Of a DNA stretch of 64,000 bases, positions 29,563 through 53,432 are shown piece by piece (the stretch's first letter is position 1; every line of letters starts with the position of its first letter). Origin of the DNA: Saururus chinensis. Taxonomy: Eukaryota > Streptophyta > Magnoliopsida > Piperales > Saururaceae. Under the pieces are notes generated by a model. It ran no database searches. It saw only the letters and a program-made list of their open reading frames with translations, and was not told where the DNA came from. Location: assembly GCA_035235625.1 (NCBI GenBank), contig CP141147.1, positions 31,001-95,000 of the forward strand, in the 5' to 3' direction. The translations under genes and the position numbers were made by a program.

Positions 29563-29982
29563 ATGGATCAGGAAGATGAGAACCTGAAGATGGCGCTGAA
29601 GATGAGCCTATTGCGCCAGAACCAAACCGCAGGGGGTTAGCGAGGAGGAGGAGCGGGACGGTCGTCTCCGGAGGCAAGGAGCCGGCGGGAGCTTATGGCT
29701 GCAGCTGCCGAGTGGAGGATGACGGCGGTGGCGTCTCCGTCAAAGTCTCCGGCGGCTGTTCCGAAAAAGGCTGAAAAAGCGACGGGTTCCCCCTCGGTGG
29801 TATCTATGGGGGCTGGAGGCGGGAAGGATGCGGCTAGTTGGTCTGTGGAGGAAAGAAAAGGGTCGGGTGTCCTTAGGGAGGGACTGTCACTGGGGGAGGT
29901 GGATCAGCTGTTCTCGATGGTGTTCGGCACTAAGGTATCGAAGGACATTTTGTTCATAATGGGCAATTCTGTAAAGATATGA
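29563..29982 (+). pseudogene. MINDY/FAM188-type deubiquitinase, N-terminal exon fragment
   Basis: An ATG at 29563 opens a frame reading MDQEDENLKMALKMSLL, which looks like a ubiquitin-interacting motif (acidic cluster, then A-L-x-x-S). It is interrupted by one TAG at 29638-29640. The same frame continues through RRELMAAAAEWRM and a Lys/Ser/Pro-rich linker to VDQLFSMVFGTKVSKDIL, where the N-terminus of the MINDY-3/FAM188 catalytic domain normally begins. These enzymes are cysteine proteases that trim Lys48-linked ubiquitin chains. The catalytic Cys and His regions are absent and the frame ends at 29982 soon after the domain start. It is the first (5'-most) fragment of the plus-strand mosaic. 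Family assignment comes from the combined UIM and MVFG...VSKDIL patterns. It is not certain. Confidence 0.6.
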
Positions 29983-30397
29983 TGAAGAAACCAATAAATG
30001 TAGAATTTCACATGCAATTTTAATTAATTTCCTAGGTATGCAATTTTATTTTTTGCTAACATGGTCTATTGAGTGAGTTTGAGTGAAAATTTTGCTATTA
30101 ACTTTCATTTGCTTGGGTTACTAAGAAGGGGTTGTTTTCTCGTACTAATTGCCTTTTTTAAAAGAGTACTGCTAAGTTGCTGCAAATGTTTCGGCAGGAA
30201 TGAGAAGAACCAGTATTTCCATTTATTTTCTTCAAGTTATTTAAAATTTATTTGTTTCTTTTTTAATTTTGAGTAATATCGTCCTTTTAAAGGACAAAAT
30301 CCCCCTAAACTTTGAAAGAATGAAATCACCTTATGAAATAAAATTTAGCATCTAAATTGATACTTGAGATTCTTATTTTATCTGGATGAATGCGGCT

Positions 30398-31200
30398 GAT
30401 TACAGAACCATTTCTGATGATCTTAGGATGCTGCTAATGAGAGGATTTGATATCATTGGAGCACTGTGGCAGCGATACCAACTTGGATGAGAATGCTGCC
30501 AAAGCAGCTGTTGCATTGCAAAATGAGCAATTTCTGCGTTGGTGATGAGAATAATGGCAACATGATAGGTGCAACTGCTAATTTGACTACCAGTGATATT
30601 TTCTTTTTTATCTCTAAACCTGGAAAATCTGTGAAGCTAGCAGTTAGGGAAGTAATATATGAAGTTCACTTAGAAAAGCTTCTCTGGCAGCTTGGTTGCC
30701 TACTATGATGTGAGCTTTTGATAAAGTTGACCGGTTATATTCCAATGGGAAAGGAATTAGATAAGTCAGTTTCATTAGTTAACAGTAACCACACAGAAGT
30801 TCAAAACGATACTGTGTATTTACATTCTAATGCCTGTTGGTTACTGACACAGGTCATTGACTCGATTTTTATCAAAATCATCATTAATACTCATTAGCAG
30901 ATATTTTTGTTACAGTAGTATGAGTTTGCTTTTCAATTATATAATTAATGTAAATATGTCTCAGATGTGGAGCATATTTTCATGTTTGCAATTGATGCTG
31001 CTGCTGCTAAACTCAGAGATACAGTTGCTATATATATTGTTGAAGGGCCTGATCAATTGTTTAAAGCAGTATCCCAGCCAGTTGTTTTTCATTCTTCTGA
31101 CCTGGATTTCAACAAAAAGCAGTTAGACTTGAAACTTCAAGTGGGTAAAGCTGAATATTTTGATGCCAAGGCAACACCTGTGCCCACTCCTATCCAATGA
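30398..31200 (+). pseudogene. Ufm1-specific protease (UFSP) N-terminal-domain fragment
   Basis: Two exon remnants. The first (30398-30708) reads DDLRMLLMRGFDIIGAL, shifts frame to SDTNLDENAAKAAVAL, and shifts again to NNGNMIGATANLTTSDIFFF and a tail ending EKLLWQLGCLL. The second (about 30965-31200) reads VEHIFMFAIDAAAAKLRD through VVFHSSDLDFNKKQ. This matches the N-terminal domain of plant UFSP, the cysteine protease that matures and removes the ubiquitin-like modifier UFM1. The papain-like catalytic domain is missing. At least two frameshifts plus the truncation make it non-functional. It follows the deubiquitinase fragment in the same orientation, but the two come from different genes. Confidence 0.7.
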
Positions 31201-31882
31201 TTAAGCCTTTATTAACGCTTACGGTGATGGATGTAAGACCCTTGAGCATACTGATTCGCTTAGATGTTATATGTAACTGGAATCATTCAAATTGCACATA
31301 TTAATCTCCATGTTGTCCTTTCCTCCGATATAAGTAATATAGCGCCATTCTTGTTTCCTAGAACCTTTGCTTCTTCCCAGTAAAAATGAATCCTGTATAC
31401 AGATCTGTCTTGCTAGTAATCTACTTATGATGTAGCATTATGTCTCCCAATTTGTCAAAGTTTTGCTGGTTAGAGTGCAGATGCTATCCAAGTGACTGCC
31501 TTTAACAATCGCTCAAATGACTGCCTTTAGTTTTATTTATATATTTATAAAATGTACATATTTCTTCTAAATTTATTTTTATATATTTTTATCATGCCTA
31601 CTTATTTATGTAGTTAGATGACCATTTTATTATTTATATTTGTTTTGAGTTTTTATATATATTTGTTTGTTGCTATATTTGTGTATACTTGTTTAATATA
31701 TATTAGATTTCTAGTCCTAATTGGATTTGGCATGTGATGTCTATATAATTATGTCTTATGTATTCTTTGAGTCATACTATTTGGACCAAATGCCATTACT
31801 AAATTAGTTGTGCCAATTGATGATATATATATATCTCTAAATATATATATTTGGTTTAAATTACTGTTTTTTATGTCTACAG
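31201..31882. other. AT-rich intron-like sequence
   Basis: T-rich and TA-rich DNA with intron-like texture, ending in an acceptor-like TTTTATGTCTACAG at 31882. No coding sequence was recognised apart from the exon that follows. Confidence 0.5.
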
Positions 31883-31947
31883 GTGCTTGAACATATCGCA
31901 TTTATAAAGCAAGATCAATCAGTTACTATGAGGGAAAAAACAAATTA
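31883..31947 (+). pseudogene. Unidentified exon, copy 1
   Basis: After a good acceptor the sequence reads VLEHIAFIKQDQSVTM. Related exons occur at 35374, 47102 and 50150 (VLEHLGFMKQDQSV, VLDHLGFVKQDQSVLRH), each preceded by a polypyrimidine tract and AG. Repeated exon-like structure argues for real coding origin, but I do not recognise the family. Here it runs into the SRP68 purine-tract region. Confidence 0.5.
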
Positions 31948-32736
31948 AATGGAGAAAAAAGTACAAAATTTCTCATCATATGACTTATATGAGAAGAGAA
32001 AAAAAAGAAAAAAAGGAAAAAAAAAAGGAAAAAAAGAAAAAAAAAAAGGAAAAAAGAGAAAAAGGAAAAAATGAAAAAAAAAAATCTTGTTAGCGATGTT
32101 CTCCCAGCCCCTCTGCCTTATAATCTCATGGTGATTATGCTTGTCTTTTGTTTCTGGAGCTGTTGGAGTGAGGGTCCCAGTGCAGGCCAACATGTTCATT
32201 TAATCAGTAGATTGAAAAAAGCAAAGGGGCCACACTTTTTTCTCATTTGTATGCCATCAAAGGTGATTCCAGAACTTCCCTTGAAGTTGAGGTACCTTTA
32301 TTTTTGCATCAAGGTTTCCTTGCTAATGTGGTAGGAGCTTTTCAATTGGCCCAACATTAGGGAATGCTAAAGTATTGGCCCATTCATTATTTGAAATTGG
32401 GTCTGCTGTAAAACTGTGTTCATTTTTTGCTAGAATACAAAATTATGGTGTATAGTTTTATGCTTTAATTATGTTAATCATCATTTCTTTCATTTAGTTG
32501 CTCATTGTTATTAACTTTGAATACTTTGTTCTGAAATCTGCTTATCATGTCTTTACTAGTAGTGGATTTTTGGACTTAATTTATATTACTTATGTTTGTA
32601 AATGTTAATTTTTGGTCCTTTAATCTGTTTATGATAATACTTTATATGTGCAGGCATATGCCTCTTATATGAAAGGGATGTTGTTTGAGCAAGATATGGG
32701 CCGGGACATTGCATTGATGAATTTCAAGCATGCCAG
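31943..32736 (+). pseudogene. SRP68: SRP68 fragment, copy A (two exons)
   Basis: An intron part with the palindromic motif and purine tract leads to an exon at about 32158-32291 encoding EGPSAGQHVHLISRLKK. It then shifts frame; the conserved reading would be KWATLFS...CAIKGDSRTSLEAE. The next exon (32654-32736) is open and reads AYASYMKGMLFEQDMGRDIA through LMNFKHA. SRP68 is the large protein subunit of the cytosolic signal recognition particle and binds 7SL RNA together with SRP72. The acceptor before the first exon is mutated (TTTCTGG). Only this short central part of an approximately 600-residue protein is present. The copy then leads into the intron preceding the receptor-kinase fragment. 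Confidence 0.75.
31993..32083 (+). repeat. A/G-rich purine tract in SRP68 intron
   Basis: Runs of A separated by G or GG, beginning just after the near-palindrome TCATATGACTTATATGA. Equivalent tracts occur at 36272-36525, 43100-43258 and, inverted, 4808-4935. Confidence 0.85.
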
Positions 32737-33011
32737 GTATTGATCATTTAGTTTAATTACCAAAATTTTCATTATGATATTTATCAAAAAATTTTCATCT
32801 TTTAGTTCAGTCAACATTTAGAGAGCCAATCTGAGCCTTAGTTTCTTTATGAGGATGCCTTGACAATACTGAGTTTAACTTTTTGTTTGCTGCAGTTTAT
32901 TAAATACTTGGGTTCACAATGCTATCCTTGCATCTCATCCATTCCCTTTTCTTCTCTATTGCTTGCTCCCTACCCCACTTCCTTCCTCCACCCCCTAGCC
33001 TCCTCTTCTCT

Positions 33012-33447
33012 GCTCTGTTCTACCCTGCCCTGCTCTTCTCTACTCATCGGCCTCTTCCACCCTCTCCTCTGCCTTCTTTTCTCCCTCCTGCTCATCTGAT
33101 GCCTCTCTGCACCTCCTTTCCTTCTCTTCATTTTCCCTGCTTTTTCTCCCCCAATGTAATTAGTAATGTTTTTGTTCTCGGTTAATTCAATTTTAATAAC
33201 TTTTGCTCATTTTTTTTTTCGTTCTTATCCGCTCTGTTCTACCCTGCCCTGCTCTTCTCTACTCATCGGCCTCTTCCACCCTCTCCTCTGCCTTCTTTTC
33301 TCCCTCCTGCTCATCTGAAGCCTCTCTGCACCTCCTTTCCTTCTCTTCATTTTCCCTGCTTTTTCTCCCCCAATGTAATTAGTAATGTTTTGTTCTCGGT
33401 TAATTCAATTTTAATAACTTTTGCTCATTTTTTTTTTTCGTTCTTAC
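33012..33447 (+). repeat. 219-bp tandem duplication of pyrimidine-rich intron
   Basis: GCTCTGTTCTACCC starts at 33012 and again at 33231. The two units are nearly identical over about 217 bases (including CCCCCAATGTAATTAGTAATG). The homologous region at 47.66-47.88 kb has a single unit, so the duplication is recent in this copy. The lengthened C/T-rich frame here is not a gene. Confidence 0.85.
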
Positions 33448-34149
33448 AGTAGTGATGGATGATATAGGAATGCTAATGTTTTGGTTAGCAAGAGGAAAAT
33501 CATACATTAAGTATGGCTTATAATTTAATTTTTGGTAGATGGACTTTGATATTGTTGGACTTTTATTTATTGGTAGATGGACTTTTATATATGGGAGCTG
33601 CTGCTTTTCTGGGCCTCATTTACTTCCTTCTTATATATGGGAGCAGCCGCCTTTCTCAGCCTCATTTACTTCCTTCTGATGTTGGACCCATCACTTGCCG
33701 GTCAGCTTTTCTTCTTTCCTCTCTTCTTTTGTGTTTCCCCTTTTTTTTTTTCTGGTTGTATGAATGTACTGGAGCATGGGGGTCGTAGAGGAAAAAGACT
33801 GCCCTTTTCTATTGCTTTGAGTGACATTCTCTATTGGGCATTCCTTCTCTTTTTTCGTTTATCTCACTTTTTCATGTTTTTGGGATATGGGTCTTTGGTA
33901 TTGAGATGAAAATGTTTGAGCCTTGTGCTGTGTTTTGGGTTTGTTATTTTTTTTCTTAGTTTGGCAGTTTTAATGAGGTGGGTGGTTTATGTTGCACCAA
34001 CTTGCATGAGCTAGGTTGGTTCTATAGTTGCTTTCAGTGACTTTGTCTGGCTTTCACTTTCTTCAATTAAAAAGAAAAGTGAAACGATGGTATTAGTATT
34101 CTTCTTTAGGTAGTGCTAGAGGCTTGTAACATTGTTTGATGCTCCACTA

Positions 34150-34250
34150 CCTCTTTCCCATATTAATAGTTCTATTTAGTTTTTCCAAAATAAACCAATT
34201 TTAGTTCCTTTTAAAAAACTAAATGGAGCTATTAATGGGGACGAAGGGAG
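34150..34250 (+). mobile_element. Stowaway-like MITE, copy 1
   Basis: A 101-base element flanked by TA on both sides. The ends are inverted repeats: CCTCTTTCCCATATTAATAG against CTATTAATGGGGACGAAGGG. The GGGACGAAGGGAG end is typical of plant Stowaway (Tc1/mariner-related) MITEs. It lies in the intron-like DNA upstream of the SPARK exon. The same element at the same relative position in the 48.5-kb copy shows that it was there before duplication. Confidence 0.75.
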
Positions 34251-34537
34251 TATGTGAGATTGTTGTTTTGCTATCCACTAATCCTTGGAGACAATGTCTG
34301 ATTCTCCTTCCATCTTTATTCTTTATTCTGTGATCAAGTTACTGGGCAGACTCATTCAGACCTTTACTCATTTTAAGCAAACCTCAAGCCCCCTTATTAA
34401 TGGTAGACTTCAACTTGCATGAGGTGCACTCCTAGTCTCCATTGTGAATTTTTAGCATTAAGAAACCCTTGTCATTTTCTATTAAAGTAATTATTTAATT
34501 TAGTTAGCTATTAACTCTGGGTGTTCTTTTTTGGCAG

Positions 34538-35092
34538 AATGTACCCTGGACATGAGTGGGTCTAATTATACAATGCGTCTTCGATATGTTCTAACCAAGC
34601 AGATCAAGGAAAGTACACAGGAAGCCTTGGTGTTCCTTCTGAGTTATCTGAGACTTGCCTTACGGCTGTCTTAGAACCTTTAAAATTTTATGGAATTAGT
34701 CCTAATGCAACTTTCTTTTGTGGACTTGGAACAAAAATTCCTGTGACATATCATTGCAAAGGCAGAACATCTTTTGCTCAAATGTTGCAAACTCTAAAAT
34801 TTGAAGAAGTCATGGAAAATTGCCAAATACCATCTCCATCCCAGGAGAGTTGTAGGCGGTGTTTAAATGCTGGTGTTTCATATCTTCATGATCTCATTGG
34901 AGCACAAGAAAATACTACACTTAATACTTGCTGGGATGCAAATTTTGTTGCACTTACAAGCTGTCAACGTAATTCATCAACATTGAAATGGCATCTTGTT
35001 TCTTTGGAATTCAAGGACTTAATTCTTGTCCAGGTACTGCTAGATTCTTGCGTTATAAATTTTTTGGTGTTGTGTTTTTTGTGGGGTGTAAT
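34538..35092 (+). pseudogene. SPARK-domain receptor-like kinase ectodomain, copy 1
   Basis: After a TTTTTTGGCAG acceptor the sequence reads ECTLDMSGSNY, loses one base, then continues as LGVPSELSETC, GISPNATFFCGLGTKIPV, CRRCLNAGVSYLHDLIGAQ and a conserved Cys-rich tail. A further frameshift follows, after which MASCFFGIQGLN is read. This is the SPARK extracellular domain of plant receptor-like kinases related to Arabidopsis At1g49730 and At3g19300, where paired cysteines stabilise the apoplastic fold. About 19 residues between the ADQG region and the GVPSEL region, including the usual Cys-Cys pair, are missing. There is no transmembrane segment or kinase domain. It is a two-frameshift relic. 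Confidence 0.8.
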
Positions 35093-35373
35093 AACTCAAT
35101 CTCTTTAGCCTTTTGTTTTGACTTATTTCCTCATATAAATTCTTTTAATCATTTACTGTTTGTCGTGTGTTAATTAATTTGTTAATTTGTCATCACAAGG
35201 ATTAGCTTATCCAATTTCAATGTGTTCATCTAGTACACATTGGGTTGGATCCAACCTGTATGGTGACCATTATGGATGACTCACTTTGTCTTTGAGGCTG
35301 CATTTGAAAATGAAAATGAGCTAATTACAATAAAAATATTTTTGATTTAAATTTCTGATTCTTATATCTATAG

Positions 35374-35398
35374 GTCCTTGAACATTTGGGATTCATAT
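35374..35398 (+). pseudogene. Unidentified exon, copy 2 (truncated)
   Basis: VLEHLGFI after a TATATCTATAG acceptor, cut off at TTCAT where the sequence switches to the intron of the inositol polyphosphate 5-phosphatase fragment. TTCAT is shared by both partners, so the junction shows microhomology. Confidence 0.5.
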
Positions 35399-35662
35399 TT
35401 TGACTACCCATTTTTTAGCATGTTGATTCCAGTCCTCTTCTTGAAAGGAGAGATTTTTTTTCTTGTATCGATTCTATTTTTTTTTAGTTGGTTTCAATCT
35501 GCTCTTTCTTTCCCTTGATCTCTCTATCTGTCTCTGTTTTTTCACTGTTTGAAATTGAATCATTGTGTTGCAATAAAAAAAAAGAACTGAAATCATGGGT
35601 TCGATGCACACCACAGTGATTAATCACCATCTTTATTCAACTTTATGGGCTCTCTTTTTCAG

Positions 35663-36251
35663 GTGGTGATGTTGAATGGGTGAGGACCAGCTTCTCTGAG
35701 AGGGAAGCATGCACTCTGAAGAAAAGGAAAACAGGTTTTGCATCACACACACTCTTTCCTCCCCCTAGACCACACTCTTACTAACCTTTCAGTTATCTTG
35801 AATTCTCTAATACTTTATTTTTTTACCCATTTCTACAGAGGGATTAGTTAACAATAATCCACATAGAGTTCAGCATGGCTTGATCGATTTAGATGTGCAA
35901 CAAGTCATTGATGTGCAGGAGCACGGGTACTATATAAGTATATTGCATTTTAATGTGGAATAACTGGACGGTGATTGTTTTTCTTTGTTTCATTACTTCT
36001 TTCTTTTGTAAATCTAGAGTTTTTGTGGCGACATGGAATGGGGGCAGGAAATCTCCTCCAAGGTATTTAAATCTTGAGGACTGGCTTCACACTTCTCCCC
36101 TAATGATATCTATGTCCTAGGGTATTTGTTCTCAATCATACTCTTCTCTATTATTTACTTGTTGAATTGTCTTGACAACTGAAAAAAATAACATTATTGT
36201 TAATTACTCTTTACTTTTCAGGATTCAAGAAATTGTGCTCTAAATGCTAGA
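35663..36251 (+). pseudogene. Inositol polyphosphate 5-phosphatase fragment, copy 1
   Basis: Four exon remnants in order: 35663-35734 (GDVEWVRTSFSEREAC), 35839-35926 (GLVNNNPHRVQHGLIDLDVQ), 36018-36121 (VFVATWNGGRKSPPRYLNL, then EDWLHTSP) and 36222-36251 (start of the FQEIVPLNAG motif, damaged by a one-base loss). The F-V-A-T-W-N-x-G-x-K-S-P-P block and LGFQEIVPLNAG mark the beginning of the catalytic domain of plant type I/II inositol polyphosphate 5-phosphatases, which remove the 5-phosphate from Ins(1,4,5)P3 and phosphoinositides. Exon phases are compatible with splicing. A one-base deletion after HTSP breaks the conserved DIYVLG reading. The rest of the catalytic domain is absent, and the sequence switches into the SRP68 intron at the palindrome. 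Confidence 0.8.
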
Positions 36252-36530
36252 AAGGTTTCATATGACTCATATGAGAAAAGAAAAAAAAGGAAAAAAAGGA
36301 AAAAAAGAAAAACGGAAAAAAAGAAAAAAAGCAAAAAAAGAAAAAAAAGGAAAAAAAGAAAAAAGAAAAAAGGAAAAAAAGAAAAAAGGAAAAAAAAGAA
36401 AAAAGAAAAAAGGAAAGAAAGAAAAAAGAGGAAAAAAAGAAAAAAAAGGAAAAAGAAAACAAGGAAAAAATGAAAAGGAACAAATGAAAAAAAGGAAAAA
36501 AAAGGAAAAGAATGGAAAAAAAGATTCTTG
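36252..36530 (+). repeat. Palindrome plus long purine tract
   Basis: TCATATGACTCATATGA (perfect palindrome around a central base) is followed by about 255 bases of A/G only, mostly A4-A8 separated by G or GG. The Lys/Glu-rich and Phe-rich frames across it are artefacts. It is the longest of four equivalent tracts and marks the switch from 5-phosphatase to SRP68 sequence. Confidence 0.9.
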
Positions 36531-36590
36531 CTAGCGATGTTCTCCCAGCCCCTCTGCCTCATGGTGATTATGCTTGTCTTTTGATTATGG

Positions 36591-37520
36591 AGCAGTTGGA
36601 GTGAGGTCCTAGTGCACGTCAACGTGTTCATTTTATAGGTAGATTGAAAAAAGGAGTCAAATGGGCCACACTTTTTTCTCATTTGTGTGCCATCAAAGGC
36701 AATTCCAGAACTTCCCTTGAAGCTGAGGTACCTTCATTTTTGCATCAAGGTTTCCTTGCTAATATGGTAGGAGCTTTTAAATTGGTCCAACATTAGAGAA
36801 TGCTTAAATATTGGCCCATTGAGTATTTGAAATTGGGTCTGCTGTAGAACTGTGTTTATTTTTTGCCGAATACAAAATTATGGTGTATAGATTTACGTTT
36901 TAATTATGTTAATCATCATTTCTTTCATTTTGTTGCTCATTGTTATTAGCTTTGAATACTTTGTTCTGAAATCTGCTTATCATGTCTTCACTACTAGTGG
37001 ATTTTTGGACTTTATTTATAATACTTATGTTTGTAAATGTTAATTTTTGGTCCTTTAATCTGTTTATGATAATACTTTATATGTGCAGGCATATGCCTCT
37101 TATATGAAAGGGACGCTGTTGTTTGAGCAAGATATGGGCCAGGACACTGCCAGGTATGCGCCATTTTGATTTTTACTTCGCTTGAAGTGATTAGTAAAAG
37201 TATATAGAAAGAACTTTGTTTACTGCCTTTTTGTTTGATGCATAGGATTTTGCAACTTGTTATAGTGTTTGCCTAACTTATTCTTGTCTAACATTGGTGC
37301 CACTGAACATGTGTGTATATATGGTCCGAACTTCTGTTTTTATATTTTTTACTAGCCTTTTGCAGTATATATCTGAGTATATATCCTTTGTGGCCTTTGA
37401 AGTGTTAAATTCCTCCTTTCTTTTTCTTCTTGAAGGGCTGTGTACACGGAGCTAGGAAAATATGGGGATGTGGAGAATCAAATTTTGTTTTGCTGAGTGT
37501 GTTGAGGAGATTGAACCTAG
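36591..37520 (+). pseudogene. SRP68: SRP68 fragment, copy B (three exons)
   Basis: Exon 1 (about 36591-36726) retains the GRLKKGVKWATLFSHLC and AIKGNSRTSLEAE readings in different frames, and its acceptor has been lost (TTATGG). Exon 2 (37089-37153) reads AYASYMKGTLLFEQDMGQD and has an in-frame 21-base deletion. Exon 3 (37436-37520) reads AVYTELGKYGDVENQIL and then shifts frame before ECVEEIEPR. The exon order and phases match the central part of plant SRP68. Frameshifts in the first and third exons and loss of the rest of the gene make it a pseudogene. The exon 3 donor leads through a microsatellite-bearing intron directly to ALY. Confidence 0.8.
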
Positions 37521-38063: not shown

Positions 38064-39014
38064 TGCTCTTGGAAAACCACGACTCTCAGAACAATTACTG
38101 CAAGAAGAGAGGAAAAAACTTGAAGAATATCGTGAACATGTCAGAGCAACTTACACTGAATTATGTGTTGGTGTTCGGGAGGGGCTACCTACAGATCTTG
38201 CTCGTCCATATTCAGTTAGACAGCGAGTAATTGCTTGGCATCCCAAGCCAAGAGAACTCCATGATGGCAGTGTATTGATTATTGATCGCAACAAGTGCAG
38301 GATTCAGTTTGATAAGCCAGAGTTACAAGTTGAGTTGGTCATGGTATGGTTCTTTTGAGCTTAAATGTTTTTAACATTCTAACTCTATGTTATTTGTATG
38401 ATATGCTGTCTTCTAGATGAGTAGAAAGTCATAAAATCTCTTTATAGTTTTTCCATTTTGAGGCTTTGCCAATCAGTCAGAGAATATCCAATTTCATTTT
38501 AAGGATACGAAGCAAATGTCTTGAAATTTTATGATCTATTGATATATTCTCGTTGACAACATGTAGGAAATACTGCTGGCAGAGATGAAGAATCTCCAAG
38601 ACGAAGTCCCATTTAGTGAGAACCTTCGGGGTCATTTTCGGGAGTACAATGCCAAGTTACTTAAACAGCTTGAACATGTTGATGACCAAGCAAGTACCTT
38701 TGCCTATTTGGCTCATGCATTTGTCTATTATTTCTCTTAAATTTTCTTTTTTAATGGATGATTGTGACATATTATTGTTTAATGCATCTCTTTTAGGTTT
38801 CTTATGCTTTGGAATTTTTGAAAGACCGTAACACCCTCAGTTCAAATGGGATTTCACCTTTAGTCAGCAGGCTGGGTAACAATGCTTAGAGGTCTGGCTG
38901 GAATTCCGGCCTTATTGAACAAGTCTGTTTTTTCTAATCAAGATATGGGATCTCTTGTGGTTGAAGTATATGATAGCTCAAGGCGAAAAAAAAAGGACAA
39001 TTGTGGATATGGAG
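38064..39014 (+). pseudogene. ALY: ALWAYS EARLY (LIN-9-like) fragment, copy 1
   Basis: Exon 1 (38064-38343) is fully open over 93 codons: [20 protein letters not shown] through [12 protein letters not shown] and [20 protein letters not shown] to the GTATGG donor. This is the conserved core of plant ALWAYS EARLY proteins, homologues of animal LIN-9/Mip130, nuclear DREAM/MuvB-type regulators. Exon 2 (38567-38689) is open over 41 codons (EILLAEMKNLQDEVPFSENL). Exon 3 (38797-39014) reads VSYALEFLKDRNTLSSNG, meets an in-frame TAG, then continues GLAGIPALLNKSV. The N-terminal SANT domain is absent. Exons 2 and 3 are assigned to ALY by position and by resemblance to the C-terminal coil, less firmly than exon 1. 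It is the best preserved fragment in the window. Confidence 0.8.
38690..38796 (+). other. GC-AG type intron in ALY fragment
   Basis: The exon reading DDQ-VSYAL is continuous only if the intron begins GCAAGT at 38690 (after CAA) and ends TTTTAG at 38796. GCAAGT is the strong consensus of the minor GC-AG intron class. The alternative GT three bases downstream would shift the frame. The same GC donor is present in the 45.6-kb copy and in the inverted copy at 4.15 kb. Confidence 0.65.
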
Positions 39015-42107: not shown

Positions 42108-42131
42108 CAGGTTTGTATTGCCTCATTTATA

Positions 42132-43092: not shown

Positions 43093-43258
43093 TTTCATAT
43101 GACTCATATGAGAAAAGAAAAAAAGAAAGAAAAAGAAAAAAAGAAAAAAGAAAAAAAGGAAAAAAAGAAAAAAATGAAAAAAAGAAAAAGGAAAAAAAAG
43201 AAAAAAAGGAAAAAAAGAAAAGGAAAAAATGAAAAAAAGGAAATAAAAAGAAAAAAAT
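43093..43258 (+). repeat. Palindrome plus purine tract
   Basis: TCATATGACTCATATGA followed by about 150 bases of A/G. It matches 36252-36530 but is shorter. It is flanked by the same 5-phosphatase and SRP68 sequences. Confidence 0.9.
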
Positions 43259-43331
43259 GGTTGCTAGCGATGTTCTCCCAGCCCCTCTGCCTCATGATCT
43301 CACGGTGATTATGCTTGTCTTTTGTTTCTAG

Positions 43332-44487: not shown

Positions 44488-44519
44488 GAGAACTTGTCAT
44501 TAATGTTACCCCCTGTGCT

Positions 44520-44820: not shown

Positions 44821-45025
44821 GTAAACAGAATAAGACAAAAATTGTTGTTTTTATTTTGGCTTTGCTGCCTCAGTTTCCTTTGTCCAACCATTTTTCGGAT
44901 CCATGTGGTGCTCAAACTTTTTTCCAGAAAACTGTATATTTGTTTAATGTCCATTTATTCATATGCACTTTGCACATAGGAAGGCAAGTAATTATCTAAT
45001 CTAATAATTTTGCTTGTTAATGCAG

Positions 45026-45957
45026 TGCTCTTGGAAAACCACGACGACAATCAGAACAATTACTGCAAGAAGAGAGGAAAAAAACTTGAAGAATTACGTG
45101 CTGGGGTTCGGGAGGGGCTTCCTACAGATCTTGCTCGTCCATTGTCAGTTGGACAGCGAGTTATTGCTTGGCATCCCAAGACAAGAAAACTCCATCATGG
45201 CAGTGTATTGACTGTTGACCAAAACGAGTGCAGGATTCAGTTTGATAAACCAGAGTTAGGATGAGCTGGTCATGGTATGGCTTTTCTGAGCTTAAATGTT
45301 TAACATTCTAACTCTTATGTTATTTGTAGGATATGTTGTCTTCTAGATGAGTAGAAAGTCATAAAATCTCTTATAGTTTTTCCTTTTTGAGGCTTCGCCA
45401 ATCAGTGTTGAAGATGTTAAATCAGAGAATATCCAATTTTATTCTAAGGATATGAAGCAAATGTCTTCAAATTTTATGATCTACTGATATATTCTCGTTG
45501 ACAACATGTAGGAAATACTGTTGGCAGAGACGAAGAATCTCCAAGACGAAGTCCCATTTAGTGAGAACCTTCGGGGTCATTTTCGGGAGTACAATGCCAA
45601 GATTCTTAAACAGCTTGAACATGTTTATGACCAAGCAAGTACCTTTGCCTATTTAGTTCATGCATTTGTCTATTATTTCTCTTAAATTTTCTTTTTTAAT
45701 GGATGATTTTGACACATTATTGTTTAATGCATCTCTTTTAGGTTTCTTATGCTCTGGAATTTTTGAAAGACCGTAACACCCTCAGTTCAAATGGGATTTC
45801 ACCTTCAGTCAGCAGGCTGGGTAACAATGCTTAGAGGTCTTGCTGGAATTCCGGCTTATTGGACCAGTCAATTTTTTTTAAACAAGATACGGGATCTCAT
45901 GTGGATGAAGTATATGATAGCTCAAGGCGAAAAAAAAGGATAATTGTGGATATAGAG
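45026..45957 (+). pseudogene. ALY: ALWAYS EARLY (LIN-9-like) fragment, copy 2
   Basis: Exon 1 (45026-45274) reads [18 protein letters not shown], gains an A (frameshift), lacks about 30 bases, then reads [20 protein letters not shown] and [20 protein letters not shown]. Another change gives a stop before the donor. The [20 protein letters not shown] part is closer to the family consensus than copy 1, so the two copies decayed separately. Exon 2 (45512-45634, open, GC donor) and exon 3 (45742-45957, with the same TAG as copy 1) follow. Confidence 0.8.
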
Positions 45958-46489
45958 GTAAGCACTTACACTTCATTTATCTTTTTTATCCCCACACCTA
46001 CTTTTTAGCTATAAACTTGACAGTTATTGAGGGTTTATTTGACGCTTCACGAGCCCTGAAAGTTGTATGCTTTTTTCTGAAGCTGTCTTTTGGTTTTAGT
46101 TGCAATGAAGAGTCTTGTTTTTTTTTTCCTTTTCTTTCCTTTCTGTTTTTTCATTTTTGGGCTGTGGGGGTATGATGGTAAACTTCTCATGTTCTTCCAA
46201 AGATAGGTGGTGTAATTATATCAATCATTATTCTTGTCACCACATCATTCATGTCCATTTTAAAACTGGGTTTTGCCGGCGTTGGACAGTGGTAGTTTAC
46301 ACTCATCTGACACCTTTCCATATTAAATTTCACCTGCATAGAGTTTTCAGCAAAAGAGATATATTTACTTTGTTAGGTCATGGTAGTTGGCATTGAGTGT
46401 GTGAGGTGACACATTCCCACAAGTTGTCATTTGTATATTTGGAATGCATGTGTCTGTGTTGTCTAATAAGTTTTCTTACTGTGTCATTG

Positions 46490-46970
46490 GGGTTTATTAC
46501 ATTTTTTTGATCTAGAAAAGTTCAAGAACAAAGATGACTTTGTTGTGAAATACAATAATTTGAGCTCATTTAATGAAATAGAGGTATATTTAATGGCCCC
46601 CTTGACAAACGTTTTTGCTTTAGTGGTGTAAGGGGATTTAAAAATATTTTATTTTTTTATTTGCCTGATTACTACTGAAATTCTTACTTGATTCATGTTT
46701 AGCTTGGAAACCATCACAAAGAACTGAGGCCAGATATTCTGAGACGGGTGTAGAGAAATCTTTGCCTCCAAAAATTGAGCGCATTCTTCGAGTCGAGATG
46801 GCTCCTCTCCAGAAGCAGTAGGTTCTGGTTACTTTGTTGTAGTCTTATTATAGTATATATTCAGATCATTTTGATTAGTTTGTATTTATATTTTGTATAC
46901 AACAAGGTATTATAAATGGATTTTAGAGCGCAATTTTCGTGACTTGAACAAGGGAGTTAGATGGAATCGG
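46490..46970 (+). pseudogene. CHR5: CHR5 fragment, copy c (three exons)
   Basis: Exons: about 46490-46583 (GLLHFFDLEKFKNKDDFVVK), 46703-46818 (LGNHHKELRPDILRRV, then a frameshift, then EKSLPPKIERILRVEMAPLQ) and 46907-46970 (YYKWILERNFRDLNKGVRWN). They match the end of SNF2 lobe 1 of CHR5/CHD1. Motif I and II exons are missing: ALY intron sequence passes straight into the fifth exon. The middle exon keeps residues lost from copy b, so copy c is not derived from copy b. Confidence 0.8.
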
Positions 46971-47101
46971 GTTTGTATTGCCTCATTTCTAATCTTCTAT
47001 TTGGAATATTTTCTGCTTCATTGTTTAATCTTCTGCTGCTCACCTTAGTTGGAAGGTACAGCATAATAGCTGGATAAATATCTACATTCAAATGTCTACA
47101 G

Positions 47102-47215
47102 GTCCTTGATCATTTGGGATTCGTGAAGCAAGATCAATCAGTTTTGAGACACAATGACCTGCCAACCTTGTTCTGAGATCTGTTTCAAATTTTGAAGGAA
47201 GCAGTGTAAAGTTTT
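47102..47215 (+). pseudogene. Unidentified exon, copy 3 (longest)
   Basis: Reads VLDHLGFVKQDQSVLRHNDL then PTLF and a stop; after a frameshift FQILKEAV may belong to the same exon. It is the most extended example of this repeated exon. I do not recognise the protein. Confidence 0.5.
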
Positions 47216-48529
47216 AGAGCAGGATGAAGCAGCCTTTATTTGATTAGCAGGCATCAGCGTTCTTCACAGTGCTGCATTTGCTATTGTTGCACCTTCACTT
47301 AAGTAATTTCATATGACAGAGCTCCTAAAAAAAATTCTACTTGGAGTGTTTCCGCTTCCCTCCTGTTTGCATTTGTTGTTTAATTTACTTGATTGATCAT
47401 TTAGTTTAATTACCAAAATTTTCATTATGATATTTATCATAAAATTTTCATTTTTTAGTTCAGTCAACATTTACAGAGCCAATCTGAGCCTTAGTTTCTT
47501 TATGAGGATGCCTTGACAATACTGAGTTTAATTTTTTGTTTGCTGCAGTTTATTAAATACTTGGGTTCTCAATGTTATCTTTCCATCTCATCCATCCCCT
47601 TTGCTCCTCTATTGCCTGCTCCCTACCCCACTTCCTTCCTCCCCCCCTAGCCTCCTCTTCTCCGCTCTGTTCTGCCCTGCTCTGCTCTTCTCTACTCATC
47701 GTCCTCTTCCACCCTCTCCTCTGCCTTCTTTTCTCCCTCCTGTTCATCTGAAGCCTCTCTGCACCTCCTTTCTTTCTCTTCATTTTTCCTTGCTTCTTCT
47801 CCCCCGATGTAATTAGTAATGTTTTTGTTCTCGGTTATTTCAATTTTAATAACTTTTGCTGGGTTTTTTTTTCGTTCTTACAGTATGATGGATGATATAG
47901 GAATGCTAATGTTTTGGTAAGCAAGAGGAAAATCATACATTAAGTATGGCTTATAATTTAAATTTTGGTAGATGGACTTTGATATTATTGCTTTTAGTTA
48001 TTGGTAGATGGACTTTTATTCATGGGAGCAGCTGCCTTTCTAGGCCTCATTTACTTCTGATGTTGGACCCATCACTTGCCGCTTAGCTTTTCTTCTTTCC
48101 TCTCTTCTTTTGTGTTTCCTTTTTTTTTTTCTGGTTGTATGAATGCACTGGAGCATGGGGTTCGCAGAAGAAAAAGACTGCCCTTTTCTATTGCTTTGAG
48201 TGACATTCTCTATTGGGCATTCCTTCTCTTTCTTCATTTATCTCACTTTTTCATGTTTTTGGGATAAGGGTCTTTGGTATTGAGATGAAAATGTTTGAGC
48301 CTTGTGCTGTGTTTTGGGTTTGTTACTTTTTTTCTTAGTTTGGCAGTTTTAATGAGGTGGGTGGTTTATGTTGCACCAACTTGCATGAGCTAGGTTTGGT
48401 TCTATAGTTGCTTTCAGTGACTTTGTTTGGCTTTCACTTTCTTCAATTAAAAAGAAAAGTGAAATGATGGTATTGGGATTCATCTTTAGGTAGTGCTAGA
48501 GGGTTGTAACATTGTTTGATGCTCCACTA
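47216..48529. other. Second copy of the intron-like block before the SPARK exon
   Basis: From about 47395 it is homologous to 32750-34150. It contains the pyrimidine-rich C/T block (one unit of the 219-base repeat) and a second C/T-rich stretch near 48.1 kb. No coding sequence was recognised. Confidence 0.65.
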
Positions 48530-48630
48530 CCTCTTTCCCATATTAATAGTTCTATTTAGTTTTTCCAAAATAAACCAATTTTAGTTCCTTTTAAAAAACT
48601 AAATGGAGCTATTAATGGGGACGAAGGGAG
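48530..48630 (+). mobile_element. Stowaway-like MITE, copy 2
   Basis: Same element, same TA flanks and same position relative to the SPARK exon as 34150-34250, with almost identical sequence. It was duplicated with its surroundings, not inserted twice. Confidence 0.75.
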
Positions 48631-49373
48631 TATGTGAGATTGTTGTTTTGCTATCCACTAATCCTTGGAGACAATGTCTGATTCTCCTTCCATCTTTATT
48701 CTTTATTCTGTGATCAAGTTACTGGGCAGACTCATTCAGACCTTTACTCATTTTAAGCAAACCTCAAGCCCCCTTATTTAGCTCTCTTTTGTTGTGACTA
48801 TCACATACGTTTTGCAAGATTAAGTACAAAGTATCACGCCTTTCATCCGTTCTATACTTTTAAACTTTGGCATTTGGGGACATATTTATTAGTTATAGCT
48901 CTTTTTTATACTGTGTGAAAGCTGAAATTGTTTGTGGGACATCGTGCGTGATGCACATTATGGTGCCATTTGTATTTATAAGCATGACAAAATATGGGAT
49001 AATAAAGCTCTAGAAAAGAGAAGTCCTCATATGATGCAGGGACTGCTTGTTAACATCTTGTTTTTAAAGTTGCTTTAAGGTGCCAACTATATTTATTTAA
49101 TATACAATGTAACCTAGGGGTCTGTCATAGTTGTTCATTTACGTCTTCATCTAGTTTGCACTCGTCTCTCTCTTTTTTTCACTATCATTATTGATTTCGT
49201 TTATGCCTTTGTGTTCATCTATTTCTTTAAAAGCACTGGTAGACTTCAACTTGCATGAGGTGCACTCCTAGTCTCCATTGTGAATTTTTAGCATTAAGAA
49301 ACCCTTGTCATTTTCTATTAAAGTAATTATTTAATTTAGTTAGCTATTAACTCTGGGTGTTCTTTTTTGGCAG

Positions 49374-49912
49374 AATGTACCCTGGATATGAGTGGGTCTA
49401 ATTATATTTTGGCGTCTTCGATATGTTCTAACCAAGCAGATCGAGGAAACAGCACGGGAAACCTTGGTGTTCCTTCTGAGTTATCTGAGACTTGCCATAC
49501 GTCTGTCTTAGAACCTTTAAAATTTTATGGACTTAGTCCTAATGCAACTTTCTTTTGTGGACTTGGAACAAAAATTCCTGTGACATCATTTCAAAGGCAG
49601 AACATCTGTTGCTCAAATGTTGCAAACTCCAAAATTTGAAGAAGTCACCGAAAATTGCCAAATACCATCTCTATCCCAGGAGAGTTGTAGGCGGTGTTTA
49701 AATGCTGGAGTTTCATATCTTCATGATCTCATTGGAGCACAAGAAAATACTGCACTTAATACTTGCTGGGATGCAAATTTTGTTGCACTTACAAGCAGTC
49801 AACATAATTCATCAACATTGAAATGGCATCTTGTTTCTTTAGAATTCAAGGCCTTAATTCTTGTCCAAGTACTGCTAGATTCTTGTGTTATAAATATTTT
49901 GGTGTTGTGTTA
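49374..49912 (+). pseudogene. SPARK-domain receptor-like kinase ectodomain, copy 2
   Basis: Reads ECTLDMSGSNYILASSICSN, QADRGNSTGNLGVPSELSET and LSPNATFFCGLGTKIPV without the early frameshift of copy 1. It then loses bases near 49582 and resumes as MLQTPKFEEVTENCQI, CRRCLNAGVSYLHDLIGAQ and the rest of the domain. It shares with copy 1 the roughly 19-residue in-frame deletion between ADRG and NSTGNL and the late frameshift before the CFFGIQG part. There are no kinase or membrane segments. Confidence 0.8.
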
Positions 49913-50149
49913 ATCATATAAATTCTATTAATCATTTATTGTTTGTCATGTGTTAATTAATTTGTTAATTTGTCATCATGAGGATTAGCTTATCCAATTT
50001 CAATGAGTTCATCTAGTACACATTGGGTTGGATCCAACCTGTATGGTGACCATTATGGATGACTCACTTTGTCTTTGAGGCTGCATTTGAAATGAGCTAA
50101 TTACAATAAGAATATTTTTGATTTAAATTTCTGATTCTTATATCTATAG

Positions 50150-50196
50150 GTCCTTGAACATTTGGGATTCATGAAGCAAGATCAATCAGTTACTAT
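50150..50196 (+). pseudogene. Unidentified exon, copy 4
   Basis: VLEHLGFMKQDQSVTIRG after a TATATCTATAG acceptor, running into a purine tract. Closest to copies 1 and 2. Confidence 0.5.
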
Positions 50197-50272
50197 AAGA
50201 GGGAAAAAAAAAGAAAAAAAAGAAAAAAAAGGAAAAGAAAGAAAAAGAAAGAAAGAAAGAAAAGGAGGTAAA
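50197..50272 (+). repeat. A/G-rich purine tract
   Basis: Short purine tract with GAAA repeats between the unidentified exon and CHR5 sequence. It is again at a junction between fragments of different genes, though the palindrome seen elsewhere is not present. Confidence 0.85.
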
Positions 50273-51070
50273 AGAATAGAATATCCATTATTGAGCTTTT
50301 ATGAGAAAGGCTGACAGGGCCTGATTGAAGGGAGGTAAACTTCGTGATTATCAGCTTGAAGGGTTGAATATTCTTGTTAACAGGTATGTAGGTTTTGTGT
50401 TTCCATCACAATTAAACCTGAATATTACAATTAGTTATTTTTTTTTGCAGCATTTCAGTGCTTCTCACTGTAATTTTTTTTGTAGTTGGGGAAATGTTTT
50501 CTGCTAGTTATGGTCAATTCTTTGTTTTTCATCTTAAAAAGTTTTTAAACAGTTCTTTTTTATCTAGATAACAGCACGCATAGCAAAGACATGGACCATT
50601 TCTTGTTGTCGTACCAGTGTCTACATTGTCAAACTAGGCCAAGGAATTTAAGAAGTGGCACCCTGAAATGAATGTAGTTATATATGTTGGCAACTGTGCC
50701 AGCGGAGAGGTAGTCCTGCCTGTAGCTTTTTTAAGAGGTGGCACCCTGAAATGAATGTAGTTATATATGTTGGCAACTGTGCCAGCGGAGAGGTAGTCCT
50801 ACCTGTAGCTTTTTTTAACTGTGCAAAGTTCTATTGTGAGTTCAGTGTATTTAAAGAATTCATTTTAGCAGTATTAGCTGACTTAATATTTTGTTGTGGC
50901 TGCAGATCTGTCAACAGTTTTTGACTTTTTCTCTGACAAGAAAAAAGGCAGGCAGACTAAGTTTGATTCTCTGTTGACCACATATGAAGTATTATTGAAG
51001 GATAAAACTTTGTTTTCCAAGATCAAGTGGAGTGCATTCTTTGAGTCGAGATGTCTCCTCTTCATAAGCA
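50273..51070 (+). pseudogene. CHR5: CHR5 fragment, copy d
   Basis: Starts one exon earlier than the other copies: 50323-50383 reads LKGGKLRDYQLEGLNILVNR, the entry to the SNF2 ATPase. The Walker A exon is then missing. 50575-50709 reads HGPFLVVVPVSTLSN-stop-AKEFKKWH. 50906-51070 reads VFDFFSDKKKGRQTKFDSLL and TTYEVLLKDKTLFSKIKW (better preserved than in copies a and b). It then jumps to the end of a later exon (VEMSPLHKQ equivalent) and its donor at GTAGGT. The same Trp-to-TAG stop as in copies a and b is present. It leads into the CHY fragment. Confidence 0.85.
50649..50814 (+). repeat. 83-bp tandem duplication across a CHR5 exon end
   Basis: GTGGCACCCTGAAATG recurs at an offset of 83 bases (50655 and 50738). 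The unit spans the end of the exon, its donor and the first intron bases, so two equivalent donor sites now lie in tandem. Confidence 0.85.
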
Positions 51071-51210
51071 GTAGGTTCTGGTTACTTTGTTGTAGTCTTA
51101 TTATAACATATATTCAGATCATATTGATTGACTTGTACTCACAAGATATCATTAGCATTGATATATTACTTTTTCAATTGACAGCTGTTTACTTTTATGC
51201 TTTATTTTAG

Positions 51211-51780
51211 GGGAATACTTGGCATTAACTGGTGAAAAATTTGATGGATCTGAGATGATTGCCCACGGCCCTGGCTACCCATTTTTGTCTTGCAGAAACT
51301 TACTTTGTTGTCTGTCAGTGACTCAATTGGCTTGAAGTTCGACTAGTCAAATTGATTACAGATGACCCTTCAGTCATAGAAAGCAATATTGACCAATATG
51401 GTGATCTTGTCTATCCTCATAAGAGGAGTGTTGTCCACAGGTTGTCTTTATTCTGATTAGGAATTTTTAGTTTTTATATGAAGACTAAAATGAAATTGCT
51501 TATCGTTTATCATGGTTAGATGGGTTTTTTTAAGTATTTGGAAAATGTCCTCAAACTATGTGTTAATGCATCTTAAAATGTGTTCTCTAGGCAGGATTGA
51601 GATTATTGATAACTGTTTTAGCCACAAAACAGTCGAGGAAATAATTGATGAACCGGTAATGTTTCTTGCTATCAGTTTGTATATCATGCTTCCTCAGTTC
51701 ATCACTCAAGAAATTAAAACAAGGTTCACCATTATGCTTGAAAGTTTCTTCTCTCTCTCTCTCTCTCTCCCCCTATGTGT
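51211..51780 (+). pseudogene. 3-hydroxyisobutyryl-CoA hydrolase-like (CHY) fragment, copy 1
   Basis: Exon at 51211 reads GEYLALTGEKFDGSEMIA, then is damaged. The sequence down to 51440 holds ITDDPSVIESNIDQYGDLVY in one of its frames. 51595-51655 reads RIEIIDNCFSHKTVEEIIDE. About 51712-51755 holds LKQGSP and LKVSS. This is the C-terminal half of plant CHY1-like 3-hydroxyisobutyryl-CoA hydrolases (crotonase superfamily, valine and branched-chain catabolism), where EYLALTG...DG.EM...GLATH and SP.SLK are typical. The crotonase core with the oxyanion hole is absent. The last exon runs into a CT microsatellite. Confidence 0.75.
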
Positions 51781-52651
51781 GTGTCTCTTGTTTTTTTCCT
51801 GATTTTCATGGTAAACATATGCATTCGGGGGTCAAACATGTATTAGTGTATTTGCCCCGAAGTCAACCTTGGTATGACATGAAAAGTGGAGCGCAATATA
51901 GTGGGGGCAGATCTTACAAGTTGGAAGTTAGATACCCAGCTTGAAGTTACAGAAGTGGTTCGTCATACAGTGAGCGTGTGCTTTCTCTCTCCCCCTCTCT
52001 CTCTCCCCTAGTTCTATTGCTCACATGGTTATACATGTGTTTTTCTATATTTGTATATGCTCATGTATTTATTAAGGATGGTACATTTTTTTTTGTTTAT
52101 AGAAGTAAACAAGTATTTATTTATTTATAAAATTTACTTTCTTTGTAAATTATTTGTATGCATTTCTTTTATGCCTACATATTTATGTGTTTATTGATAT
52201 TCATATGTACACATTGATATATTTGTCTATATTTGTATAGATATGTCACCCATTTATTTATTTATCTCTCTCTCCCCCTCTCTCTCCCCTAGTTCTATTG
52301 CTCACATGCTTATACATGCATTTTTCTATATTTGTATATGCTCATATTTTTTTAAAGATTGGTACATATTTTTTTATATAATATACTTTTGTAAATTATT
52401 TGTATGCATTTCTTTTATGCCTACATATTTATGTGTGTTTATCTATATTCATATATACACATTGATATATTTGTATAGATATATCAACAATTTATTTATT
52501 TATCTCTCTCCCTTTTTCTCCACTTCTTTTCTTTGATCATGTTGATTTGGTGTTTGAATTTTCTTAATTTTCTATGTACTGACACGATATCATTAGCGTT
52601 GATTTATTATTTTTTCAACTGACAGCTGTTTACTTTTATGCTTTATTTTAG
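51781..52651. other. CHY introns with CT-microsatellite repeats
   Basis: Two diverged copies of the same block: CT microsatellite, CCTAGTTCTATTGCTCACATG, then AT-rich sequence with ATTTATGTGT (about 51985-52240 and 52260-52500). A third copy precedes the giant CT array at 53.55-53.74 kb. Nothing coding. Confidence 0.7.
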
Positions 52652-53432
52652 GGGAATACTTGGCTTACCTGGTGAAAAGTTTGATGGATCTGATATGATT
52701 GCCTGCGGCCTGGCTACCCATTTTTGTCTTAATACAGTTTGTTTGCATTTTACATATTCTCTTGGAATTTTTTTCCTCATTTTAGTCTTGCAGAAACTTA
52801 CTTTGTTGTCTGTGGCAGAAACTCAATTGGCTTGAAGTTCGACTAGTCAAATTGATTACAAATGACTCTTCAGTCATAGAAAGCAATCTTGACCAATATG
52901 GTGATCTTGTCTATCCTGATAAGAGGAGTGTTGTCCGCAGGTTGTCTTTATTCTGATTAGGAATTTTTGGTTTTTATATGAACTAAAATATATTGAAATT
53001 GCTTATTGTTTATCACGGTTAGATAGGTTTTTTAAGTATTTGGAAAATGTCCTCGAACTATGTGCATATTAATATGTGTTCTCTGGGCAGGATTGAGATT
53101 ATTGATAACTGTTTTAGCCACGAAAAAGTTAGGAAATAATTGATGCACTGGTAATGTTTCTTGCTATCAGTTTGTATATTATGTAGGCTGTGCTTCCTCA
53201 GTTCATGAATTATAAGCATCTGCTAGTTACCTCTGCTTAGGGAGATAAGAGTAATTATTGTTTCCTGACTATTAGTACATGACATCCTAAGTAACTTGTT
53301 AGTATCATATGCCTTCTGGCCACTCATGTCTGTGCAGGAAAATGAATTAGCATGGTCAGACGATGAAAAGATTGATTCAGCACTCAAGCAATTAAAACAA
53401 GCTTCACCATTAAGCTTGAAAGTTTCTTCTCT
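52652..53432 (+). pseudogene. 3-hydroxyisobutyryl-CoA hydrolase-like (CHY) fragment, copy 2
   Basis: Exons: about 52652-52729 (LPGEKFDGSDMIACGLATHF, frameshifted near its start), 52794-52940 (KLTLLSVAETQL, frameshift, LEVRLVKLITNDSSVIESNL, then DQYGDLVYPDKRSVVRR), 53091-53150 (RIEIIDNCFSHEKV, frameshift) and 53338-53432 (DDEKIDSALKQLKQASPLSL). It covers the same C-terminal half as copy 1 and in addition keeps the penultimate exon. The conserved SLKxSLRSIREG end is replaced by CT repeats directly after LSLKVSS. It is the last gene relic before the simple-sequence array. Confidence 0.78.

What the first reader, a model, noticed from the sequence alone, without database searches (positions are those of the whole stretch)
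29563..53432. Same-strand mosaic of fragments from eight unrelated genes
Exon-intron pieces of MINDY/FAM188-type deubiquitinase, UFSP, SRP68, SPARK receptor kinase, inositol 5-phosphatase, ALY, CHR5 and CHY lie one after another, all in coding orientation on the plus strand. Donor genes are functionally unrelated, introns are retained and every piece is partial. Retained introns exclude retroposition. Uniform orientation over eight genes is unlikely under random rearrangement and is a hallmark of Helitron-type capture, although serial template switching is also possible. A chimeric transcript would splice in sense. This is the best candidate here for an undescribed element.
Basis: partly seen in the sequence, partly recalled or inferred. 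Interest (0 to 1): 0.92.

Follow-up and report, generated by a model that had tools for sequence, protein, structure and literature searches.

The report
Tandemly copied patchwork of gene pieces
A stretch of plant DNA holds broken, intron-bearing pieces of about nine unrelated genes that all read in one direction, and this patchwork was later copied several times in a row and now decays as non-coding DNA; it is a striking case of a known kind of plant genome scrambling rather than a proven new kind of element.

Summary
The fragments are real, partial, intron-bearing and on the plus strand. Pfam, solved structures or parent proteins support MINDY, SRP68, SPARK kinase, inositol 5-phosphatase, ALY, CHD1-type remodeler (CHR5) and a CHY/mS47 hydrolase. 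UFSP matches only a sequence I recalled.

The main structural fact was also missed: this is not eight pieces in a row but a composite [5-phosphatase, SRP68, ALY, CHR5, ABCD1, SPARK] present as about four partial head-to-tail units, 4-10% diverged, with an older, inverted, rearranged piece at 3.65-4.95 kb. Changes between copies fall 33/38/32 over codon positions, so the copies decay without detectable coding constraint. Well-fitting joins share 0-5 bp.

No Helitron-like 3' end was found from 29.1 to 64 kb; one candidate lies at 27261 on the minus strand. No convincing CACTA or inverted-repeat ends were found. Best account: serial capture of gene pieces (route unresolved: Helitron-type or repair with template switching), then local tandem duplication and deletion. 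The host genome could not be reached, so parents and other loci are untested. I file it as a new member of a known kind, not a demonstrated new element.

The parts
29563..29952 (+). MINDY-type deubiquitinase, 5' coding part, aa 1-123, frame-shifted
   Evidence: tblastn with PF13898 plant proteins, best E 7e-17; protein search best 1e-4
30413..31110 (+). UFSP-like N-terminal piece (probable)
   Evidence: tblastn with a recalled Arabidopsis sequence, E 3e-12 and 5e-5; no Pfam, PDB or database support
31883..31930 (+). unidentified exon V (VLEHIAFIKQDQSV), unit U0
   Evidence: 31845-31960 repeats 50112-50228, 82%
31994..32740 (+). unit U0: purine tract and SRP68 piece
32739..35396 (+). unit U0: region X (perhaps the SPARK 5' part) and SPARK exon 34538-35033
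   Evidence: repeat of 47392-50172
35392..36262 (+). unit U1: inositol 5-phosphatase piece, 4 exons
36276..37520 (+). unit U1: purine tract and SRP68 piece
38064..39014 (+). unit U1: ALY piece; codons for aa 657-792 missing
39561..40394 (+). unit U1a: CHR5 (CHD1-type) piece
40395..42134 (+). unit U1b: tandem copy of the ALY end and CHR5, with later CHR5 exons
   Evidence: repeat of 38992-40180, 87% with gaps, 95% without
42351..43100 (+). unit U2: 5-phosphatase piece
43113..44150 (+). unit U2: purine tract and SRP68 piece
45024..45951 (+). unit U2: ALY piece
46477..46994 (+). unit U2: CHR5 piece, upstream CHR5 exons absent
47102..47145 (+). exon V, unit U2
   Evidence: sequence; acceptor AG
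47158..47320 (+). ABCD1 (ABC transporter D family member 1) piece, ninth donor
   Evidence: PDB 9wfg residues 775-827, E 3.6e-6
47392..50172 (+). unit U2: X and SPARK piece, start of the next exon V
50203..51137 (+). unit U3: purine tract and CHR5 piece with internal deletions
51211..51761 (+). mS47/CHY hydrolase piece, copy H1
52652..53439 (+). mS47/CHY hydrolase piece, copy H2
3651..4950 (-). older inverted, rearranged copy: ALY part (3651-4429) and purine tract/SRP68 part (4594-4950), about 70-83% in the longer matches
53700..64000 (.). right flank: pyrimidine-rich array to about 62.3 kb, then purine-rich to the window end

Best explanation
A composite of partial genomic copies of about nine nuclear genes, joined in one coding orientation, was formed first. 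It was then multiplied in place as head-to-tail partial units and trimmed by deletions; well-fitting joins share 0-5 bp. It now drifts without detectable coding constraint. Shown here: identity of most fragments, shared strand, retained introns, head-to-tail repetition, short shared sequence at joins, no coding constraint since duplication. Inferred: the capture step. I judge serial capture by a rolling-circle (Helitron-type) element whose ends are lost, decayed or outside the window the likeliest single route (about 40%), closely followed by break repair with template switching (about 35%). Multiplication by unequal exchange or microhomology-mediated duplication is inferred from the repeats and joins.
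For: Direct repeats: 35392-42.1 kb with 42351-46994, 32739-35396 with 47392-50172, 38992-40180 with 40395-41524, 51134-51702 with 52575-53206; K2P 0.036-0.095 over 11 pairs. Both full units lack ALY aa 657-792 and keep the order 5-phosphatase, SRP68, ALY, CHR5, so the composite predates its duplication. Changes per codon position 33/38/32, p = 0.74; synonymous share 0.27 against 0.22 expected, p = 0.19 (103 changes, 5 pairs). Exon divergence 6.3% (122 of 1929), intron 4.5% (228 of 5080), over 6 of the 11 pairs. Join J1 has 5 bp TTCAT with 44 of 44 matches. Donor genes lie on separate contigs in Protea and Nelumbo.
Against: The capture route is untested: no convincing ends were found and the host genome could not be searched. 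Random-orientation repair does not predict all donors on one strand. Of 12 joins, J5 and J7 fit moderately (36 of 44), J4, J10 and J12 loosely (32-34), and J8 failed (4 of 44), so those breakpoints are uncertain. In one of five pairs with exons (5-phosphatase) exons differ less than introns, 3.8% against 5.6%. SPARK/X copies (0.036) are less diverged than SRP68/ALY copies (about 0.065), so one single duplication event is too simple.
Confidence: 0.68

Rival explanations
1. The whole 24 kb is one non-autonomous Helitron carrying captured fragments.
For: Several partial, intron-bearing donors, all sense; maize Helitrons carry 0-12 fragments acquired stepwise (PMC3288121, passages). A minus-strand CTAA-T with an 11 bp hairpin (1 mismatch) lies at 27261, 2.3 kb left of the array. 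Plus-strand candidates (6) exceed all 26 shuffles (0-5), but all lie left of 28.8 kb.
Against: No CTRR-T end with hairpin from 29.1 to 64 kb on either strand. The 27261 candidate would make the donors antisense to the element, and the minus-strand count (2) is within the shuffle range 0-5. The only separate copy in the window is partial and shows no shared end.
Confidence: 0.2
2. Break repair or replication template switching copied unlinked gene pieces as filler at a fragile, purine/pyrimidine-rich site, and then duplicated them locally. This is one possible capture route within the best explanation.
For: Well-fitting joins share 0-5 bp; purine tracts at 4 places in the array and a pyrimidine/purine array at the right edge. 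Copying of gene sequence as filler DNA is discussed for wheat in PMC3445842 (passages).
Against: Predicts random orientation; all recognised donors share one strand (p = 0.004-0.008, post hoc). Whether tracts lie closer to joins than chance was not tested.
Confidence: 0.35
3. Capture by a CACTA or Mutator-like element.
For: [quoted passage not shown]
Against: CACTACAA absent; TTGTAGTG once, at 26051; looser end patterns elsewhere only at 858, 1313, 61161 and 61193. Inverted 13-mers between 27.9-29.6 and 53.0-53.8 kb: 2 (one overlapping site), mirror control 2, no target duplication.
Confidence: 0.08
4. Plain segmental duplication of neighbouring genes.
For: Shared strand and order.
Against: Every recognised piece is partial; three parents lie on three contigs in Protea and four on four scaffolds in Nelumbo. 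On the other side, in Ranunculus cassubicifolius 5-phosphatase and SRP68 hits share a contig length of 278.6 Mb, which says nothing of adjacency.
Confidence: 0.04
5. Assembly artefact joining unrelated reads.
For: A low-complexity edge and repeats make assembly hard.
Against: Partial copies share the composite order with 4-10% divergence, and an older piece lies about 25 kb away.
Confidence: 0.04

Closest known systems
Gene-fragment-carrying Helitrons of maize
   Same: Several unrelated partial genes in one stretch, built stepwise (PMC3288121, passages)
   Different: No Helitron end found in or right of the array; the composite is tandemly repeated in place
Tgm-Express1 (CACTA, soybean)
   Same: Intronic and exonic parts of five unrelated genes (PMC1947982, passages)
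   Different: 5.7 kb with inverted-repeat ends; no such pair found here
Filler-DNA gene movement in grasses (break repair)
   Same: Gene sequence copied to new sites during repair (PMC3445842, passages); short shared sequence at joins here
   Different: Here eight or nine donors share one strand and the block is multiplied

Membership tests
Helitron | 3' CTRR with upstream hairpin, followed by T | tested here: inconclusive
   None from 29.1 to 64 kb on either strand; one minus-strand candidate at 27261 left of the array; ends beyond the window untested
Helitron | 5' TC next to A, insertion into AT | not tested
   Motif too short without a known 3' end or an empty site
Helitron | Separate copies share both termini | tested here: inconclusive
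   The only separate copy in the window (3651-4950, minus) is partial and shares no end with the array; host genome unreachable
Helitron | Rep/helicase (autonomous elements only) | not tested
   No dedicated search; only selected ORFs went to Pfam
CACTA | CACTA inverted ends, 3 bp target duplication | tested here: inconclusive
   No CACTACAA in the window, loose patterns far from the array; ends outside untested
Pack-MULE | Long inverted repeats with target duplication | tested here: inconclusive
   No such pair within 1-53.7 kb around the array and no 13-mer pair above control at its near flanks; ends outside untested
Processed retrocopy | Introns removed | tested here: not met
   Introns retained
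Segmental duplication of neighbours | Parents adjacent in the same order | not testable with these tools
   Host genome unreachable; other plants argue against it

The most novel reading that the evidence does not exclude
A satellite-like amplifying unit built from sense-strand pieces of nine unrelated genes, made without any transposon, by a copying process that prefers the transcribed orientation, for example repair templated on transcribed genes or on unspliced nuclear RNA next to a fragile pyrimidine array.
Probability: 0.07. Interest if true: 0.75.

Novelty: new member of a known kind. Interest (0 to 1): 0.33.

Why it matters
It shows a multi-donor gene-fragment composite caught after local multiplication, which lets the order of events be read: assembly first, tandem copying later, then decay. 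If the sense bias held over many such arrays it would point to transcription-linked capture. As it stands it is a warning against annotating such regions as genes.

Tried and rejected
Helitron-like 3' ends: 6 plus-strand and 2 minus-strand candidates in the first 53.7 kb, none from 53.6 to 64 kb. The plus-strand count exceeds all 26 plus-strand shuffles (0-5), but every plus candidate lies left of 28.8 kb, upstream of the array and in the wrong place for its right end; the minus-strand count is within 20 shuffles (0-5). The 27261 minus-strand candidate was not followed to a second end. CACTA and inverted-repeat ends. A Castanea protein with SRP68 plus an SNF2 domain (P0263) looked like a shared chimera; its SNF2 part matches the CHR5 fragment at 42% over 55 aa, so I take it for another remodeler and a coincidence, without further test. 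P0010 matched mS47 and, weakly (26%, E 0.001), SRP68; dismissed as chance. No other of the 289 listed proteins (of 685, 223 and 49 significant hits; two lists capped at 120) joined two donors. Pfam gave nothing for 9 ORFs of the left part and one of region X. DM_Arn matches on the UFSP piece (E 0.027 and 0.001, below cut-off) rejected as chance. Exons differing more than introns is only partly explained by CpG (without CpG-linked sites p = 0.047). Naming the plant failed: the first nine named ALY hits are monocots, the other donors point to mixed angiosperms. Literature searches and the passages read gave me no measured sense bias for captured fragments; that such a bias is reported for maize is recalled only. 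Papers were seen as search listings and passages, none in full.
Full report
What was given.

Identity of the pieces. Hand-spliced exons gave Pfam matches above the curated cut-off for SRP68, SPARK, DIRP (ALY), SNF2 and ECH_2, and just below it for Exo_endo_phos2 (24.4 against 27 bits). The SNF2 piece is closest to CHD1 among solved structures, which agrees with CHR5. Protein searches returned plant parents: 3-hydroxyisobutyryl-CoA hydrolase-like/mS47 proteins (the 'CHY' piece), type IV inositol polyphosphate 5-phosphatase 7-like proteins and SPARK receptor kinases, ALWAYS EARLY proteins, SRP68 and, weakly, MINDY (best 1e-4). tblastn of 12 of the 289 listed proteins against the raw window places each piece: MINDY aa 1-123; 5-phosphatase aa 36-120; SRP68 aa 109-203; ALY aa 562-656 and 840-917; SPARK kinase aa 22-216; mS47 aa 194-319. 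The exon between the two ALY blocks matches aa 793-839 (32%, E 4e-4). The 'UFSP' piece has no Pfam, PDB or database support but matches a recalled Arabidopsis UFSP2-like sequence, so I treat it as probable. A short piece at 47158-47320 matches plant ABC transporter D1 (PDB 9wfg, E 3.6e-6): a ninth donor. An exon reading VLEHLGFxKQDQSV occurs at about 31.88, 35.38 (cut), 47.10 and 50.15 kb and stays unidentified.

Introns and strand. AG precedes 22 of 23 exon starts and GT follows 14 of 14 exon ends at anchors I chose after reading the sequence, so these are genomic copies, not processed retrocopies. All recognised donors in the array read on the plus strand; the two-sided p is 0.008 for the eight supported by a call and 0.004 with UFSP, and the pattern was picked after the fact. 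Ten minus-strand ORFs, selected from 73 of 50 aa or more, and ten plus-strand unassigned ORFs gave no Pfam match above cut-off; a minus-strand donor in small exons is not excluded.

The structure that was missed. Self-comparison shows that the array is made of direct repeats. Writing P, R, A, C, D, S for 5-phosphatase, SRP68, ALY, CHR5, ABCD1 and SPARK (with its upstream part X), the order is: MINDY, UFSP, then unit U0 (R, X-S), unit U1 (P, R, A, C, with the A end and C tandemly doubled), unit U2 (P, R, A, C, D, X-S), unit U3 (C), then mS47 twice. Gap-free divergence between copies gives K2P 0.036-0.095 (11 pairs). Both copies of ALY lack the codons for aa 657-792 and both full units keep the order P-R-A-C, so the composite existed before it was multiplied. 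A further, more diverged and rearranged piece (ALY and purine tract/SRP68 parts, about 70-83% identity in the longer matches) lies inverted at 3651-4950, beyond repeats that look like nested LTR remnants.

No coding constraint detected. Among 103 changes between copies in chosen exon stretches of 5 pairs, 33, 38 and 32 fall on codon positions 1, 2, 3 (p = 0.74); the synonymous share is 0.27 against 0.22 expected (p = 0.19). Over 6 of the 11 pairs exons differ more than introns, 122 of 1929 against 228 of 5080 sites (p = 0.002; without CpG-linked sites p = 0.047); the 5-phosphatase pair goes the other way (3.8% against 5.6%). The copies therefore decay like pseudogenes since their duplication. 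A chimeric transcript could exist, but no protein among the 289 listed is the same chimera.

Joins. Twelve joins were examined in 17 comparisons. With a fit of 40 or more out of 44: J1 5 bp (TTCAT, 44 of 44), J2 2, J3 0, J6 0, J9 2, J11 3. With 36: J5 4, J7 5. With 32-34: J4 0, J10 6, J12 4. J8 failed. Some are joins between units, others deletions or small tandem copies inside units. This fits end joining or replication template switching; target duplications at the joins were not looked for.

Ends. Scanning for CTRR followed by T with a GC-rich hairpin upstream gave 6 plus-strand and 2 minus-strand candidates in the first 53.7 kb and none from 53.6 to 64 kb; all lie left of 28.8 kb. Plus-strand shuffles gave 0-5 in 26 trials and minus-strand shuffles 0-5 in 20, so the plus count is above chance but sits in the repeat-rich left part, where it cannot be the right end of a plus-strand element holding the array. 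The minus-strand candidate at 27261 could be the 3' end of a minus-strand element that spans the array; its other end was not sought. CACTA-type ends and short inverted repeats between the near flanks were absent or at control level. The right flank is a pyrimidine-rich array from 53.7 to about 62.3 kb that turns purine-rich until the window ends, so an end beyond the window cannot be excluded.

Mechanism. Two steps are needed: assembly of a same-strand composite, and its local multiplication. The second is shown by the repeats; how it happened is inferred from the joins. The first is inferred. Helitrons take up fragments stepwise, up to 12 in maize (PMC3288121, passages), and a reconstructed bat Helitron captures flanking DNA by reading through its 3' end and makes circles (PMC4778049, passages). 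A soybean CACTA carries five unrelated gene pieces with introns (PMC1947982, passages). In wheat, copying of gene sequence as filler DNA during break repair is discussed (PMC3445842, passages). In a 22 Mb maize region 187 Helitrons, 20 LTR retrotransposons, 9 MULEs and 5 CACTA elements carried gene fragments (PMC2773423, passages). Here the lack of ends in the array speaks against a single intact Helitron; the shared strand speaks against purely random filler. I leave the capture route at about 40% Helitron-type, 35% repair or template switching, 10% other transposons, the rest other routes.

Parents. In Protea cynaroides the mS47, 5-phosphatase and SPARK hits lie on contigs of three different lengths; in Nelumbo four parents lie on four scaffolds. 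In Ranunculus cassubicifolius two hits share one 278.6 Mb contig length. This argues against a plain segmental duplication but only by analogy, since the host genome could not be reached in nine tries.

Verdict. It is a tandemly multiplied, decaying composite of gene fragments: a good example of a known kind. I score it 0.33.

Noticed in passing
53700-64000: About 8.6 kb of pyrimidine-rich low-complexity sequence (CT with AGCGCT-like steps) that switches near 62.3 kb to purine-rich sequence for the rest of the window.
   Followed up: partly
5000-27900: Several diverged copies of repeat blocks that look like nested LTR-retrotransposon remnants; the 6 ORFs from this stretch that were tested gave no Pfam match.
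   Followed up: partly
7993-10128: LTR-like block starting TGTAACGACC and ending GGTCGTTACA, with a diverged relative at 16381-18373.
   Followed up: no
28554-29095: Possible hAT-type MITE starting TAGGGGTGTTC just left of the array, with a 72 bp internal tandem repeat.
   Followed up: no
27261 (minus strand): An 11 bp hairpin (1 mismatch) 4 nt before CTAA-T, the minus-strand Helitron-like 3' end closest to the array on its left side.
   Followed up: partly
5977-28703 (plus strand): Six CTRR-T plus hairpin matches, more than in any of 26 shuffles, all within the repeat-rich left part.
   Followed up: partly
32739-40180 compared with 40395-50172: Exons differ more than introns between copies, and transitions barely exceed transversions (1.1-1.3), which I recall as unusual for methylated plant repeats.
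   Followed up: partly
51269-51300 compared with 52730-52800: mS47 copy H1 lacks an intron-bearing stretch that lies between GTCTT repeats in H2, which mimics intron loss but looks like a deletion.
   Followed up: no
8355-8459: GC-rich 45 bp tandem repeat, 98% matches.
   Followed up: no
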